13,401 nucleotides of DNA, from positions 1 through 13,401 of the forward strand of contig CAMIIY010000019.1 in the NCBI GenBank assembly GCA_946221045.1. The letters run 5' to 3'. The stretch is from an uncultured Oceanospirillaceae bacterium (GTDB taxonomy: Bacteria; Pseudomonadota; Gammaproteobacteria; Pseudomonadales; Balneatricaceae). Under the pieces are notes generated by a model that saw only the letters and a program-made list of their open reading frames with translations, was not told where the DNA came from and searched no databases. Both the position numbers and the translations under genes were made by a program. Below are positions 6,065 to 10,050 of the stretch, piece after piece (position 1 is the stretch's first letter; each line of letters opens with the position of its first letter).

Positions 6065-6535
6065 TTATGAGAGCTGAGACTGCAGGTAGTTCTGGATACC
6101 GATGCGTTTTATCAGACCCAGTTGCTGTTCCAGCCAGTAGGCGTGATCCTCCTCGGTGTCTTCCAGCAACTTTTCCAGAATTTCACGGGTCTGATAGTCC
6201 TGCTCTTCTTCGCAGATCTTGATTGCACCTTTCAGGGCATCGCCCACGTCATATTCCAGCTGTAGGTCGTTGGTGAGCATCTCCGGTACATCTTTGCCCA
6301 CCTTGAAGCCCGTGCGTTTGGTCATATTCGGCGTGCCTTCGAGCATCAGCATCCGTTCGATCAGTGCAGCAGCGTGACCTTTCTCATCATCAAATTCATG
6401 GTCGATACGCTCATAGAGTTTGGTCAGACCCCAGTCTTCATACATCCGGGAGTGGATGAAGTACTGATCCATAGCGGCCAGCTCCATCGCCAGCAGTTCA
6501 TTCAGGGCATTGATAACCCGTACATTACCTTTCAT
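6065..6535 (-). CDS. bfr: Bacterioferritin subunit with intact ferroxidase site, lacking haem Met
   Basis: Bacterioferritin forms a 24-subunit cage that oxidises Fe(II) and stores it as mineral. From ATG at 6535 the product has 156 residues. In E. coli Bfr numbering the ferroxidase ligands are all present: E18, E51, H54 and E94, plus E128/H131, which equal E127/H130 after a one-residue insertion. Tyr25 is also kept. Residue 52, the haem-ligand Met, is Lys, so this subunit alone should not form the bis-Met haem site. The motifs [14 protein letters not shown] and [13 protein letters not shown] resemble Pseudomonas FtnA (formerly BfrA). An upstream in-frame start at 6574 was rejected: MKGNVRVI matches the family start, and TGAGGA, which includes the neighbour's stop, lies 7 nt upstream. 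The gap to the other subunit gene is 10 nt, so the two should be co-expressed. Confidence 0.95.
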
Positions 6536-6545
6536 TGTCCTGTCC

Positions 6546-7010
6546 TCAGATGTTCGACTGCAGATAGTTTTCAATACCGGTGTGCTGAATCAGGTATTGC
6601 TGGGTTTCCAGCCAGTCCACGTATTCCTCTTCGTACTCCAGAATCTCTTCCAGAATATCCCGGCTGACATAATCACTGGCGGTCTCGCATTCGGCGATGG
6701 CGGTGCGTAGCAGCGTCAACTCATCCATCTGAAAATCCAGATCACACTGAATCATCTCTTCGGTGTGTTCGCCGATGCGCAACCGGTCCAGGTGCTGCAG
6801 GTTGGGTAAACCTTCCAGAAACAGAATGCGTTCGATCAGCTCATCCGCCTGTTTCATGTCCTTGATCGACTTTTTGTACGCTTTTTCATTCAGCTCATTG
6901 AAGCCCCAGTTTTTATAGATCCGCGCGTGCAGGAAATACTGGTTGATTGAGGTCAGTTCGCTGGTAAGCACTTTGTTTAACAATGCGATGATTTGTTTGT
7001 CGCCTTGCAT
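6546..7010 (-). CDS. bfr: Bacterioferritin subunit with haem Met but degenerate ferroxidase site
   Basis: This 154-residue bacterioferritin paralogue precedes the other subunit in the same - strand operon. It starts [15 protein letters not shown], with AAGGAA 6 nt before the ATG. In E. coli numbering it keeps E18, Tyr25, E127 and the haem-ligand Met52. Four ferroxidase ligands are changed: E51 to Asp, H54 to Gln, E94 to Gln and H130 to Tyr. It should therefore bind haem at the two-fold interface but be poor at iron oxidation on its own. The mirror pattern in its neighbour points to a mixed cage. Paired, specialised subunits of this sort are known in Magnetospirillum, and two-subunit bacterioferritins occur in Neisseria and Pseudomonas. 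Bfd, encoded divergently, reduces the haem to release iron. No strong promoter was identified upstream. Confidence 0.95.
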
Positions 7011-7163
7011 GGGAAATTCCTTGTGGTTAGCAACCGTGGTCTCAGAACAGGTTCTCAGTTTAGTTCATAAATGGGCTGTTTCTCACAGCCTAACAAAATG
7101 AAGACGACGATGGCATCCCAAATCTTAATAGAAAAATATTCATACAAAGCGACAAGATTAGCG

Positions 7164-7192
7164 TTGAAATAAAACCAAATGATAAGTATTAT
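7164..7192 (+). promoter_or_regulatory. Sigma70 promoter of bfd
   Basis: TTGAAA (7164-7169) and TATTAT (7187-7192) are separated by exactly 17 nt, each one mismatch from consensus. Transcription should begin near 7199, giving a leader of roughly 30 nt before the bfd ATG. The Fur box covers the -10. Confidence 0.75.
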
Positions 7193-7197
7193 CATTT
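7177..7197. promoter_or_regulatory. Fur box over the bfd -10
   Basis: A perfect 9-3-9 inverted repeat (AAATGATAA, GTA, TTATCATTT) contains TGATAAGTATTATCA. That differs at one base from the 7-1-7 Fur core TGATAATnATTATCA. Fe-Fur bound here would block the -10 and repress bfd when iron is plentiful, matching known Fur control of bfd in other gammaproteobacteria. Confidence 0.85.
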
Positions 7198-7231
7198 ATA
7201 TTAAATTAACAGTTCGCCGGTTTTGTTTTAT

Positions 7232-7426
7232 ATGTATATCTGCATTTGCAACAACGTTACGGATCGTCAGGTTAAGGAAGCCGTTGAGCAGGGCGCACGT
7301 AACCTGCGGGATCTTAATCAGTCACTGGATGTTGCTGGTACCTGTGGTAAATGCGCCTGTGCCGCCCGCAAGCTGATGCAGCAGCACCTGAGTGAACAGG
7401 ACTTTGAACTGGCGGTACCCGCCTGA
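7232..7426 (+). CDS. bfd: Bacterioferritin-associated ferredoxin
   Basis: Bfd is a small [2Fe-2S] protein that docks on bacterioferritin near the haem and passes electrons to reduce stored Fe(III), releasing iron. The 64-residue product matches E. coli Bfd in size and in its opening MYICICN. The four cluster ligands are present at C4, C6, C38 and C41 (TCGKC), with an extra Cys43. A TTG at 7223 is in frame but would add three residues ahead of the conserved MY(I/V)C(I/L)C start, so ATG 7232 is preferred. No clear Shine-Dalgarno precedes it; the short leader is rich in T. It diverges from the two bacterioferritin genes and is controlled by a Fur-covered promoter, so it should be made when iron is low. 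A terminator follows. Confidence 0.95.
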   Translation: MYICICNNVTDRQVKEAVEQGARNLRDLNQSLDVAGTCGKCACAARKLMQQHLSEQDFELAVPA

Positions 7427-7453: not shown

Positions 7454-7478
7454 AAGCCGGATTTTTTCCGGCTTTTTT
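7454..7478 (+). terminator. Intrinsic terminator after bfd
   Basis: AAGCCGGA (7454-7461) pairs with TCCGGCTT (7467-7474) around a five-T loop, followed by a run of T through 7478. It ends bfd. Read on the - strand, the tail is only CTTCTTATT, so termination of the convergent lipoprotein operon here would be weak. Confidence 0.85.
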
Positions 7479-7501: not shown

Positions 7502-8218
7502 TCAGGGGTCAAAACGGGTCAGCTCAAAGCTGATGGTGCCGCCTTTGAATATTTCCAGATCCAGCGGTTCCTCTCTGACCAGCTTCACCAGTCCTACTCC
7601 CGGTGCGTACCATTCGGTCTGGGTCAGTTTTACATCCGTATAACCAAGCTTGGGGTCAGCGTAGAGGTTGACCTTGGCTTTACCTTCAACCTTAACGCAG
7701 TTGGTAAACGTGCCCGCTGGTACGGTGACGGTTTCCTGCAGCCCGACAATCTCAAACAACATGTAGATATCACGTCCGCCGGGATCTTCGACCGCATAGG
7801 AGGGCAGGCTGTGCAGCGCGTAGGAGCGGGTAGTGGCTGACCAGTTGCGTCCCAGATCTAAGTCCTTGAAGTTTGGCAGAATACGGACCTCTTCCTCCTC
7901 ATACCGTGGACTGTATTCAATCAGGGTACGCCGACCGATCCGGTAGCTGCCGGTGTCATCCTGCAGGATGTAATAGTCGGTTCCGTCACTGGTATGGCGA
8001 ATACTGACGGGTTCATCGGCATAACGGCCATCCAGTTTTGCCGGACCCTGGTTTTCGATGCTGAAATTACGTTCACTGCGGCGATCAGTCAGATCTTCAG
8101 TCACTTTATATTCCCAGCGCACACCCTCATGCAGCGGGAAGTAGTCTGTTTCCGGTATATCTGCACCGCAACCACCCAGGAGCAGGGCCATCAGTGCCAT
8201 TGGCATTAGCGTGCGCAT
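7502..8218 (-). CDS. Predicted lipoprotein, last gene of ion-motor operon
   Basis: I do not recognise a named family. The 238-residue product begins with a lipoprotein signal: a hydrophobic stretch and the lipobox LGGC, giving lipidated Cys17. The residue after Cys is Gly, not Asp, which by the E. coli rule favours outer-membrane sorting. The mature part looks like a soluble beta-rich domain: it opens YFPLHEGVRWEYKV, contains VPAGTFTNCVKVEG and ends near WYAPGVGLVKL. That pattern is common in uncharacterised periplasmic lipoproteins. The start ATG has GGAG 8 nt upstream and lies 2 nt after the stop of the preceding two-helix gene. Being last in an operon with a MotA/TolQ-like and a TolR-like protein, it is probably the outer-membrane or periplasmic partner of that machine. 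This role is inferred from context only. Confidence 0.8.
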   Translation of the reverse strand: MRTLMPMALMALLLGGCGADIPETDYFPLHEGVRWEYKVTEDLTDRRSERNFSIENQGPAKLDGRYADEPVSIRHTSDGTDYYILQDDTGSYRIGRRTLIEYSPRYEEEEVRILPNFKDLDLGRNWSATTRSYALHSLPSYAVEDPGGRDIYMLFEIVGLQETVTVPAGTFTNCVKVEGKAKVNLYADPKLGYTDVKLTQTEWYAPGVGLVKLVREEPLDLEIFKGGTISFELTRFDP

Positions 8219-8220
8219 AC

Positions 8221-8736
8221 TTATTTCTCCGGCAGTGCCGGATCCGGCAGATCGGAAAATTCGAGCAGATACTTATGTTCGCCGAAGGCTTTTTTACCCT
8301 CCACACTTTCCGGTTTTTCCGGTTTGGGTGAGCGTTGCCCTAGCTGAATACTGCCATTGCGGATATCTTTCATGGCAATCTGGATATTGGTATGGGTTTC
8401 CTGATCATAAGGCACGCGATAGGCGCGGGGTTCCTCTGCCAACTGCTGGCCTTTCAGGTCGGTCAGCCAGAGGAAGATGCCACCCTCAATACCTTTTTCT
8501 TTATCCGGTTCTTCCACCACAGCGTAGTGCATCAGAAATTTTTCCGGCACATCCGCGTCCGTTGGCCAGCCCTGAGCCTGCTTCCAGCTCTGATAGCTGA
8601 TCCAGTAAAAGCCCAGTGCCAGCACCACCAGTGCCAGTTTGAAAAGCCAGTGTAACCGGCCGGAGATAACGGCGAGTAATAACACGGCGGTCAGAAACAC
8701 ATAGGCCAGAATCAGGCCCAGCAGTACTTCATTCAT
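8221..8736 (-). CDS. Small membrane protein with two N-terminal helices, ion-motor operon
   Basis: The function is unknown. The 171-residue product has two predicted membrane helices, about residues 3-24 and 31-48, joined by the short basic loop SGRLHWLFK. The positive-inside rule places that loop in the cytoplasm and the remaining 120 residues in the periplasm. The soluble part is charged, with a Lys/Pro/Glu-rich stretch (SPKPEKPESVEGKK) near the end, and shows no motif I recognise. Its ATG overlaps the stop of the TolR-like gene in an ATGA arrangement (8733-8736), a sign of translational coupling, and its own stop lies 2 nt before the lipoprotein start. It is likely an accessory part of the complex formed by its neighbours. 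Confidence 0.8.
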   Translation of the reverse strand: MNEVLLGLILAYVFLTAVLLLAVISGRLHWLFKLALVVLALGFYWISYQSWKQAQGWPTDADVPEKFLMHYAVVEEPDKEKGIEGGIFLWLTDLKGQQLAEEPRAYRVPYDQETHTNIQIAMKDIRNGSIQLGQRSPKPEKPESVEGKKAFGEHKYLLEFSDLPDPALPEK

Positions 8737-9341
8737 TTTGCATCTGCCTCAATAATGCTTTTTTGCAACTGGTTAATATTGATGACCTCACCCCCCGGGG
8801 TGATGGTAAAACGCAGTGCGGTCATCTCCTCGCCCTCTTTCTTCAGGGTGGTGGTGCTGTAGTTGAGCACTTTCATCACGGGGTTGACCTCTGCCAGATA
8901 GACGGTGACCGGCACCTCTTCCTGATTTTCGCTCTTGAAATAGTGCAGGTTAACGATGTACTCCCCCGGTGGGCGGCCACGAATGGTCAGAACCTCCTGG
9001 TTCAGCGGATTGACGATCTCCTGACCGTTAATGACCTGTGTATCGTTGGCCATGCCGCGGTCGTCACGGTCCAGATGCATCAGTCCCTGCTGGGTGCGCA
9101 TATACCAGACCTGGGTATGGTCAGGCCCCTGTGCCCAGACATCGATATCGTTGGGGTTGCGGTCCGGCCAGCTGACCGTGATCAGAAATTCGGCCTTGGG
9201 GTCGATGATGCCGGATTTTGCTGGCGGGTTGAGCAACAGCAGTGCCACCAGAAACAAAAAGGTGAAGGTCAGCAACGCATTGAACAGCAGGTCCGTAAAC
9301 GGGTCGATATCAAAGTCGCGTTTGTGATTGAACAGCGCCAT
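8733..9341 (-). CDS. TolR/ExbD/MotB-like single-helix partner with novel periplasmic domain
   Basis: The 202-residue product has a short cytoplasmic start (MALFNHKRDFDID), one membrane helix at about residues 18-37 and a periplasmic region of about 160 residues. At the head of the helix PFTDLLFNALLTF places Asp17 where ExbD, TolR and MotB have their proton-accepting Asp. The periplasmic part does not look like the TolR/ExbD fold or the OmpA-like peptidoglycan-binding domain of MotB. It has NDIDVWAQGPD near residue 64, LDRDDRG near 90 and RPPGEYIVNLHYF further on. This is a beta-sandwich-like pattern with clustered Asp that recalls DUF2135-type domains. It starts 4 nt after the TolQ-like gene. 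I infer it is the rotor/stator partner of that protein; the domain assignment is tentative. Confidence 0.8.
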   Translation of the reverse strand: MALFNHKRDFDIDPFTDLLFNALLTFTFLFLVALLLLNPPAKSGIIDPKAEFLITVSWPDRNPNDIDVWAQGPDHTQVWYMRTQQGLMHLDRDDRGMANDTQVINGQEIVNPLNQEVLTIRGRPPGEYIVNLHYFKSENQEEVPVTVYLAEVNPVMKVLNYSTTTLKKEGEEMTALRFTITPGGEVININQLQKSIIEADAK

Positions 9342-9345
9342 AGGC

Positions 9346-10050
9346 TTACCCGTTCACCCGGGTGCTGTCACCAAAGCGATGACCAAGGTTGACGGTTTCG
9401 GCGATCAGGCGGTCGGCCATGCGGTCCAGCATCAGGTATTGCGCCCCCAGCAGCATGCTGCAGACCAGACCGATCATGGTGGTGTTCATGGCGATGCCCA
9501 TGCCCTGTGTCATCTGCTGCATCAGTTCCTTGATATCTGACAGGTCGAGATTCTCCAGCCCGGATATAGAGCTGAGCATGATGACAAAGCCGACCACTGT
9601 TCCCAGCAGTCCAAGCTTGACCATCAGCCCGGAGACAAACCAGCCCACCTGATGTGAGCCCCGGGCACCTTCGGCCAGCAGTTCGGCCAGCAGGGCGTTT
9701 TCGTTTTCATGCTTGGCGCTGTGGCTTTTCAGCAGGCCGGAAAAATAATCCTGCGACAGTGAGCGGCCTTCAGCATAGGGCTGGCTGATGCCCGGATGCT
9801 GGCCACGGCTGAACTGCTGGTGGAAATGATCAAACATCAAAAACTGTCGGGCAATAAAGTAGCTGCGACGGGCACAGTGCACCGACATCACCAGCAGCAT
9901 CATCAGAATCAGCAGGCTCAGACGGGTTTTATCCTGATCCAGAATGGTTTGCAGCACCTGCAAATCCCAGCTGATGTAGAGGCCGAACAGCATCAGACCT
10001 GCCATGAGCAGCCAGTAGAGCAGGGTTTTGTAGGCAATCGGCTGATACAC
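9346..10050 (-). CDS. MotA/TolQ/ExbB-family proton channel protein
   Basis: This family forms pentamers around a dimer of ExbD/TolR/MotB-type helices and turns ion flow across the inner membrane into mechanical work. The 234-residue product has the family core: VKLGLLGTVVGFVIML (about 144-159), with Thr151 at the pore position of TolQ/ExbB, and MGIAMNTTMIGLV (about 184-196), with Thr190/191 on the next helix. Two further hydrophobic helices lie at about 10-27 and 44-60, with a cytoplasmic loop of about 75 residues between the helix pairs. That gives four helices, like MotA, rather than the three of TolQ/ExbB. The start is GTG, with GGA 8 nt upstream. It leads a four-gene operon; no tolA, tolB, pal or tonB is visible nearby, so this is not the standard Tol or Ton system. 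Confidence 0.87.
   Translation of the reverse strand: MYQPIAYKTLLYWLLMAGLMLFGLYISWDLQVLQTILDQDKTRLSLLILMMLLVMSVHCARRSYFIARQFLMFDHFHQQFSRGQHPGISQPYAEGRSLSQDYFSGLLKSHSAKHENENALLAELLAEGARGSHQVGWFVSGLMVKLGLLGTVVGFVIMLSSISGLENLDLSDIKELMQQMTQGMGIAMNTTMIGLVCSMLLGAQYLMLDRMADRLIAETVNLGHRFGDSTRVNG

What the first reader, a model, noticed from the sequence alone, without database searches (positions are those of the whole stretch)
7502..10050. Four-gene ion-motor operon of unknown function
A MotA/TolQ/ExbB-type channel (pore Thr151 and Thr190/191, four helices as in MotA) is followed by a TolR/ExbD/MotB-type protein with the key Asp17, a two-helix protein and a lipoprotein. Gaps are 4, -4 and 2 nt, so the four proteins are probably made together and form one complex spanning both membranes. 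Known rotary stators (Tol, Ton, flagellar, gliding, Zorya) come with other partners, and none of those is visible here. This may be an undescribed proton- or sodium-driven envelope machine.
Basis: partly seen in the sequence, partly recalled or inferred. Interest (0 to 1): 0.75.

Follow-up and report, generated by a model that had tools for sequence, protein, structure and literature searches.

The report
Bacterial and phage three-gene ion motor
A set of neighbouring genes that looks like an ion-powered membrane motor, with an unusual outward-facing part, is kept together in scattered bacteria and also in many bacterial viruses, and its job has not been described as far as could be found.

Summary
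On the minus strand, A (MotA/TolQ/ExbB-type channel), B (one-helix protein with Asp17), C (membrane protein) and D (lipoprotein) are packed with gaps of 4, -4 and 2 nt. No characterised system matched.

The conserved unit is A-B-C, found in order in 80 of 81 bacterial loci (the miss is cut by a contig end). The last part varies: 45 loci have D, 35 others an L,D-transpeptidase and/or VWA-FHA gene, none both, one neither.

B has no detectable peptidoglycan-binding domain. Its modelled periplasmic part is all-beta with a TerD-like fold and weak DUF2135 kinship. D resembles YmcC-type lipoproteins.

Unexpectedly, phages carry A-B-C too: 151 of 157 viral loci, and five of five Rhizobium/Sinorhizobium phage isolates examined, including 16-3. 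B's Asp is kept in 130 of 130 viral and 83 of 88 bacterial sequences. Phage A proteins almost lack the cytoplasmic domain.

Best reading: an undescribed branch of 5:2-type ion motors delivering work in the periplasm, with exchangeable outputs in bacteria. Complex formation, ion, rotation and biological role are inferred. New variant of a known kind.

The parts
9346..10050 (-). A: MotA/TolQ/ExbB-type channel subunit, 234 aa, GTG start; pore residues Thr151 (9600-9598), Thr190 and Thr191 (9483-9478)
   Evidence: PF01618 4.6e-9; alignment A3; across 80 bacterial and 159 viral A proteins T191 is T in 80/80 and 152/159 (7 S); T151 is T in 75 of 78 bacterial rows with a residue there (3 K) and in 138/159 viral (20 N, 1 A)
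8733..9341 (-). B: one-helix subunit with the candidate ion-binding Asp17 (9293-9291) and an all-beta periplasmic part (about residues 46-199) with a TerD-like fold
8994..9149 (-). Acidic cluster of B: Asp65, Asp67, Asp93, Asp94, Glu116; candidate calcium site (inferred; their closeness in space was not checked)
   Evidence: All five identical in 218 of 218 sequences (88 bacterial, 130 viral); Asp93/94, and Asp65/67 for part of the viral set, were in the search patterns
8221..8736 (-). C: N-terminal hydrophobic segments (probably two helices) and a conserved C-terminal part (PRAYxxPY, DLPDPxLPEK); no family
   Evidence: No Pfam/NCBIfam hit over cut-off and no PADLOC hit; homologue after B in 81/81 bacterial loci and detected in 155/157 viral loci
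7502..8218 (-). D: lipoprotein (lipobox Cys17), DUF3108-like, YmcC-type fold; accessory output part
7454..7474 (-). Terminator-like hairpin just after D
   Evidence: Pattern scan, consensus match only

Best explanation
A and B form an ion-driven motor of the 5:2 stator kind. Ions pass between the Thr-lined helices of an A pentamer and Asp17 of a B dimer and drive movement of B. C is the third, constant subunit. B ends in an all-beta TerD-like domain with an invariant acidic cluster (perhaps calcium-binding) instead of a peptidoglycan-binding domain, so the work is delivered in the periplasm to a partner other than the cell wall. In this bacterium that partner is probably D, a lipoprotein of YmcC-type fold that probably sits in the outer membrane; other bacteria use an L,D-transpeptidase and/or a VWA-FHA protein. 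I think the likeliest job is upkeep or trafficking in the outer envelope, powered from the inner membrane. Phages carry the A-B-C motor, probably to act on the host envelope during infection. Shown: gene order, co-conservation, conserved channel and Asp residues, predicted folds, phage carriage. Inferred: 5:2 stoichiometry, rotation, ion identity, calcium binding, partner contacts and the envelope role.
For: A matches PF01618. Asp17 is D in 83/88 bacterial and 130/130 viral B sequences. Channel Thr columns are conserved. A-B-C order holds in 80/81 bacterial loci, 13 of the 15 genomes newly found in the phylum survey and 151/157 viral loci. Pairwise distances of A, B and C correlate at r 0.68-0.89, with 0 of 500 permutations as high in each comparison. 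B fold. D fold. D and LDT/VWA-FHA exclude each other: 45, 35, 0 overlap, 1 with neither. The stretch of A between residues 62 and 136 has a median of 75 residues in bacteria and 17 in viruses, so there is little to grip a cytoplasmic rotor.
Against: No multimer was predicted and no experiment exists. Five of 88 bacterial B sequences (alpha-type loci) have Val at position 17 and keep only Asp13. 20 of 159 viral A proteins have Asn, and 3 of 78 bacterial ones Lys, instead of Thr151. The TerD likeness is by fold only: profile comparison gives 0.2-4.2% probability, and Foldseek alone gave no match at E <= 0.001. DUF2135 kinship by Pfam is weak (13 of 53 members, best 0.0018), and the DUF2135 alignment had only 6 sequences, picked by a W/DxDL motif. 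Below its two best matches, D is nearly as close to DUF1849, autotransporter barrels and vitellogenin as to lipid carriers. Three of 27 D proteins have Asp at +2, an inner-membrane signal in enterobacteria (recalled). Distribution is patchy (16/398 phylum, 11/99 family, 5/194 order), so it is not a core housekeeping system.
Confidence: 0.55

Rival explanations
1. A sensor or exclusion device: a minimal Zorya-like membrane module that detects disturbance of the envelope (for example incoming phage DNA) and blocks infection; phages carry it for superinfection exclusion.
For: ZorA models are the best NCBIfam/PADLOC hits of A; patchy distribution; carriage by many phages, including 16-3, called temperate in PMC5537653 (passages).
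Against: ZorA hits are far below cut-offs (27.9 against 100 bits). B, C and D have no PADLOC hit and no nuclease or helicase lies in the operon. In the window the operon lies near infB-rbfA-truB-rpsO-pnp and bacterioferritin genes, not in a visible defence island (gene names recognised from sequence). Neighbours of the other loci were not scanned for defence genes.
Confidence: 0.22
2. A regulated ion channel or leak rather than a motor: A and B conduct ions, and calcium binding by B and the C subunit gate them.
For: The phage A is close to a bare channel (62-136 stretch median 17 residues); invariant acidic cluster in B.
Against: The MotA/ExbB and one-helix Asp architecture is otherwise that of motors (families recalled; PMC12505986, results part 1 and section 14 read). 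Dedicated further genes (D, or LDT/VWA-FHA) co-occur with the module.
Confidence: 0.13
3. A Ton/Tol-like uptake energiser that lends its force to a separate transducer encoded elsewhere.
For: A is of the TolQ/ExbB/MotA family; VWA force transducers next to TolQ-like motors have been proposed (PMC12204202, section 8 read).
Against: Window B matches no Pfam family and C and D do not resemble TonB/TolA in Pfam; no TonB or TonB-dependent receptor gene was recognised among the window's ORFs (by eye). The rest of the genome is not held.
Confidence: 0.1

Closest known systems
5:2 ion motors: MotAB, ExbBD, TolQR (families recalled; PMC9389320 by passages, PMC12505986 by abstract, results part 1 and section 14)
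   Same: PF01618 channel subunit followed by a one-helix subunit with a membrane Asp; adjacent genes
   Different: B has a TerD-like all-beta domain and no OmpA or ExbD/TolR match; a constant third gene C; exchangeable further genes; carried by phages
TPH-vWA motors, Williams-Jones et al. 2025 (PMC12204202, abstract, outline, section 8 and passages read)
   Same: TolQ-like channel whose pore helix carries a non-standard periplasmic domain; proposed force transducer of unknown role
   Different: Their pore-helix proteins are vWA folds and occur predominantly in heterologous pairs; here B is all-beta and single, and C follows. A VWA protein occurs only as a separate gene in the second architecture
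Zorya ZorAB (NCBIfam and PADLOC models)
   Same: MotA-type channel; patchy distribution
   Different: ZorA scores below cut-off; no PADLOC match for B, C or D; short A
TerD family (PDB 3ibz, 2qz7, 2kxt; 2qng, titled unknown function, is recalled as a member)
   Different: No profile-level sequence kinship; here tethered to a motor helix and facing the periplasm
YmcC-type lipoproteins (PDB 3fzx, 4fvs; more weakly 2in5 YmcC and LolA)
   Same: Fold of D; lipoprotein
   Different: In an operon with an ion motor

Membership tests
MotA/TolQ/ExbB channel family (PF01618) | Over the curated cut-off | tested here: met
   A: 36.5 bits, cut-off 22.9. One viral A tested (L201) scored 22.5, just below
5:2 ion motor | Membrane Asp in the B helix and channel Thr in A, conserved | tested here: met
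   exceptions: 5/88 bacterial B have V17; 20/159 viral A have N151 and 3/78 bacterial A have K151
5:2 ion motor | Pentamer around dimer, ion-driven rotation | not testable with these tools
   No multimer prediction on hand
ExbD/TolR | Pfam/NCBIfam family match of B | tested here: not met
   0 families for window B; no ExbD/TolR model among the 10 Pfam families listed for 53 members
MotB/PomB | OmpA-like peptidoglycan-binding domain | tested here: not met
   No OmpA match; the model is beta strands after the helix
Zorya | ZorA over cut-off with ZorB and effectors | tested here: not met
   27.9 against cut-off 100 bits; no PADLOC hit for B, C, D
Tol-Pal / Ton | TolA/TonB, TolB, Pal partners in the operon | tested here: not met
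   C and D have no such Pfam or NCBIfam match; rest of the genome not held
TPH-vWA motors (PMC12204202) | vWA domain on the pore helix | tested here: not met
   B model is one helix plus beta strands; no VWA hit in Pfam
TerD | Pfam PF02342 or profile kinship | tested here: not met
   No PF02342 hit; hhalign 0.2-4.2%
TerD | Fold | tested here: met
DUF2135 (PF09906) | Profile kinship | tested here: inconclusive
   13/53 members at E <= 0.1, best 0.0018; hhalign 83-92% against at most 0.3% in controls, on 6 motif-picked DUF2135 sequences
DUF3108_like (PF21347), for D | Over the curated cut-off | tested here: met
   Window D 32.1 against 27 bits; a divergent D (L060) 18.2, below it

The most novel reading that the evidence does not exclude
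Phages carry a family of minimal rotary ion motors: three genes, the channel almost without a cytoplasmic domain, forming a separate viral lineage. The same motor in bacteria is fitted with exchangeable outer-envelope output modules. It would be a general periplasmic work unit that viruses deploy on the host envelope during infection.
Probability: 0.45. Interest if true: 0.9.

Novelty: new variant of a known kind. Interest (0 to 1): 0.76.

Why it matters
Few outputs of 5:2 ion motors are known (motility, phage defence, secretion, membrane stabilisation and nutrient import are listed in PMC12204202, passage). This adds a module with a new type of periplasmic head, a constant third subunit, interchangeable further genes, and wide carriage by phages, which I did not find described in the held library (searches; listings capped; subscription journals and preprints not held). 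It makes a direct test possible: what work can an A-B motor do without a cytoplasmic rotor interface, and why would a virus want one? Sinorhizobium phage 16-3 (genes p038, p040, p042) and cultured relatives of the window give ready laboratory systems.

Tried and rejected
A known system by family search: rejected. A plasmid location: only 7 Azospirillum records at about 32-34% identity. TerD kinship by profile: not supported; a first TerD alignment had only 4 sequences because my motif filter was too narrow and was rebuilt with 33. Link to phospho-signalling: metallophosphatase plus Ser/Thr kinase-Usp follow C in L108 and look alike in L109, but were not seen by eye in L110, L112 or L113, so it was dropped as a general claim. 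Link to lysis: endolysin and protease families near the prophage-like module L118 and an endolysin near L269, but replication genes near others, so no general lysis claim. The text searches for MotA in phage papers gave false hits (MoTad2, an author name). (DUF2135, YfaP or macroglobulin) matched 8,357 papers and its 6 rows named neither DUF2135 nor YfaP, so it is no evidence of absence. The viral structure library (BFVD) gave 5 matches at E <= 0.001, mostly parts of longer phage proteins, not followed. Simple hydropathy was too coarse to count helices. L106 and L107 were not fully matched by the bacterial profiles; reading the wider regions showed A-like and C-like ORFs by eye in L117 (not scored), and in L118 an A at 5e-7 and a C at 2.9e-4.
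Full report
The operon. The four ORFs are on the minus strand: A 10050-9346, B 9341-8733, C 8736-8221, D 8218-7502, with gaps of 4, -4 and 2 nt. A matches PF01618 well over its cut-off; window B matches no Pfam family and C none over a cut-off; D matches DUF3108_like (PF21347) over its cut-off. NCBIfam and PADLOC give ZorA hits for A, below cut-off where NCBIfam sets one, and nothing over a cut-off for the others. Neighbours are a PQQ-dependent dehydrogenase upstream and, by recognition from sequence, bfd, two bacterioferritins, pnp, rpsO, truB, rbfA and infB on the other side. The closest locus found is from Neptuniibacter sp. CAU 1671 (98% identity in B); A is 90% identical to a protein filed under 'Pontibacter sp. 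JAM-7'.

Conservation in bacteria. B has 5194 relatives at E <= 0.001 in the protein search (120 listed), A 261 (120 listed). With the window that makes 81 loci. A was found in 80 (the missing one, L062, begins with B at a contig end; L002 holds only a cut A and L036 an A in two ORFs), C in 81, D in 45, co-oriented. With ORF starts taken as the longest, the A-B gap is within 30 nt in 73 of 80 and the B-C gap in 65 of 81. What accompanies them differs cleanly: 45 loci have D; 31 have genes of an L,D-transpeptidase cluster upstream (YkuD), 24 a DUF302 cluster, and 23 a VWA-FHA cluster after C (clusters by BLAST linkage; one member of each put through Pfam). 35 have the transpeptidase and/or VWA-FHA; no locus has both D and either of these; one short contig (L032) has neither. 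One genome (G008, from Methylohalomonas lacus locus L053) carries one operon with D and one without D, the latter with the transpeptidase.

Distribution. Of the 15 genomes newly found, 13 show A-B-C with the bacterial profiles, ten of these being one alpha-type group; the other two are divergent. One of these, L118, lies beside endolysin and phage-protease families, so it is probably a prophage. So the module is widespread but patchy.

Phages. tblastn of window B against 50,697 phage records gave 27 records, all Rhizobium or Sinorhizobium phages, annotated 'hypothetical protein' in the 20 rows listed; a query from L118 gave 9 records, again only these two host groups, and a marine viral B gave 27; the lists overlap. 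Gene order was read in five isolates chosen from these (16-3, RHph_N34, N3_13, I1_18, X2_25): in each an A-like ORF of 138-148 aa precedes B and a C-like ORF of 141-153 aa follows; in N34, N3_13 and I1_18 the three are adjacent, in 16-3 small ORFs lie between, and in X2_25 small ORFs and an HNH endonuclease gene. Profile E-values, for a search of this small set only, were 3e-14 to 1.3e-4 for A, 1.4e-45 to 1.4e-24 for B and only 1.7e-4 to 1.4e-3 for C, so the C assignment rests on weak scores plus position. Two scans of IMG/VR gave 185 and 83 relatives; the best 80 of each made 157 loci, of which at least seven repeat a contig already listed and some are the isolates above. With profiles seeded by bacterial and phage members, A-B-C occurs in order on one strand in 151 of 157, BC in 4 and AB in 2. 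Metagenomic viral contigs can be misassigned, but the isolates cannot; of 10 neighbour proteins tested, 9 match phage families, among them endolysin, DNA polymerase and exonuclease. A FastTree tree of 218 B sequences puts the 130 viral ones on one side of a branch (local support 98, 0 of 500 label shuffles as low); several long branches make deep placement unsure.

Residues. In those 218 sequences (88 bacterial; 130 viral, counting L118) Asp17 is D in 83 of 88 and 130 of 130; the five exceptions are Val, and the alpha-type loci L108-L110, L112 and L113 show it. Trp58, Asp65, Asp67, Asp93, Asp94, Gly96 and Glu116 are identical in all 218. Asp91-Gly96 lay in the search patterns, and Asp65-Asp67 in one of them, so those columns are partly selected for; Asp17, Trp58 and Glu116 were not. 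Asp13 is in all 88 bacterial sequences and is not conserved in the viral ones. In A, Thr191 is T in 80/80 bacterial and 152/159 viral (7 S); Thr151 in 75 of the 78 bacterial rows with a residue there (3 K) and 138/159 viral (20 N, 1 A); Asp40 in 77 of 77 filled bacterial rows and 155/159. The stretch between window residues 62 and 136 has a median of 75 residues in bacteria and 17 in viruses; it is under 45 in 8 of 80 bacterial and 158 of 159 viral rows.

Co-inheritance. Distance matrices of A, B and C correlate (viruses, 123 loci with distinct B: AB 0.87, BC 0.81, AC 0.68; bacteria, 80 loci: 0.84, 0.89, 0.88; D against A, B, C in 44 loci: 0.81, 0.77, 0.88), with 0 of 500 permutations as high in each. 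Shared descent alone can give this, and no unrelated gene was used as a control; it shows co-inheritance, not contact.

Mechanism. The channel and the Asp helix fit an ion-driven motor. Because phage A proteins almost lack a cytoplasmic domain, and because the variable genes look like periplasmic, lipoprotein or membrane-anchored proteins, I infer that the output is on the outer side. D's fold suggests lipid or lipoprotein handling; the transpeptidase and VWA-FHA set suggests cell-wall work. These are inferences from folds and gene order.

Prior work. PMC12505986 (abstract, results part 1, section 14 read) notes generic ion transporters with varied domains of unknown function. PMC12204202 (abstract, outline, section 8, passages read) describes vWA proteins coupled to TolQ-like motors. 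PMC9389320 was seen by passages only. I found no description of a DUF2135/TerD-headed motor or a phage-borne one in the held library (several listings were capped); subscription journals and preprints are not held.

Verdict. The real unit is A-B-C, shared by bacteria and phages. It is a new variant of the ion-motor kind with an unknown biological role.

Noticed in passing
L121 4259-6120 (phage 16-3), L122-L125, L160-L316: A-B-C motor cassette in phages, with no function given in the records read; in 20 viral loci a related gene that looks like a trypsin-like protease lies upstream (the 16-3 neighbour p036 matches Pfam Trypsin_2).
   Followed up: partly
L108-L110, L112, L113: Alpha-type loci: B has Val instead of Asp17 but keeps Asp13; the candidate ion-binding residue may have moved one helix turn, or the motor may be altered.
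   Followed up: partly
L108 6673-8853, L109 9074-11241: A metallophosphatase and a Ser/Thr kinase with a universal stress domain follow C in L108 (Pfam); the same-looking pair follows C in L109. Not seen by eye in L110, L112 or L113.
   Followed up: partly
L035, L038-L041, L066 and others: Second architecture: L,D-transpeptidase and DUF302 genes before A, VWA-FHA gene after C; tilS-, accA- and dnaE-like genes lie further downstream on the opposite strand in 24, 22 and 21 loci (names recognised from sequence).
   Followed up: partly
L207, L308, L238 and related viral loci: Genes related to an Hsp20 gene (PHROG 432, L238) and genes that look like ClpS and ClpP lie near the motor cassette in 18, 17 and 16 viral loci.
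   Followed up: no
window 8733-9341 against phrog_1735: The B beta domain weakly matches (1.4e-4) positions 427-556 of a 673-position phage protein family of unknown function, so the domain may also occur in larger phage proteins.
   Followed up: no
window 6065-7426: Two tandem bacterioferritin-like genes with a Bfd-like gene beside them (recognised from sequence).
   Followed up: no
protein P0122: The nearest A relative other than the window's own is filed under 'Pontibacter sp. JAM-7', a genus of another phylum (recalled); the label is probably a mistake for a marine gammaproteobacterium.
   Followed up: no
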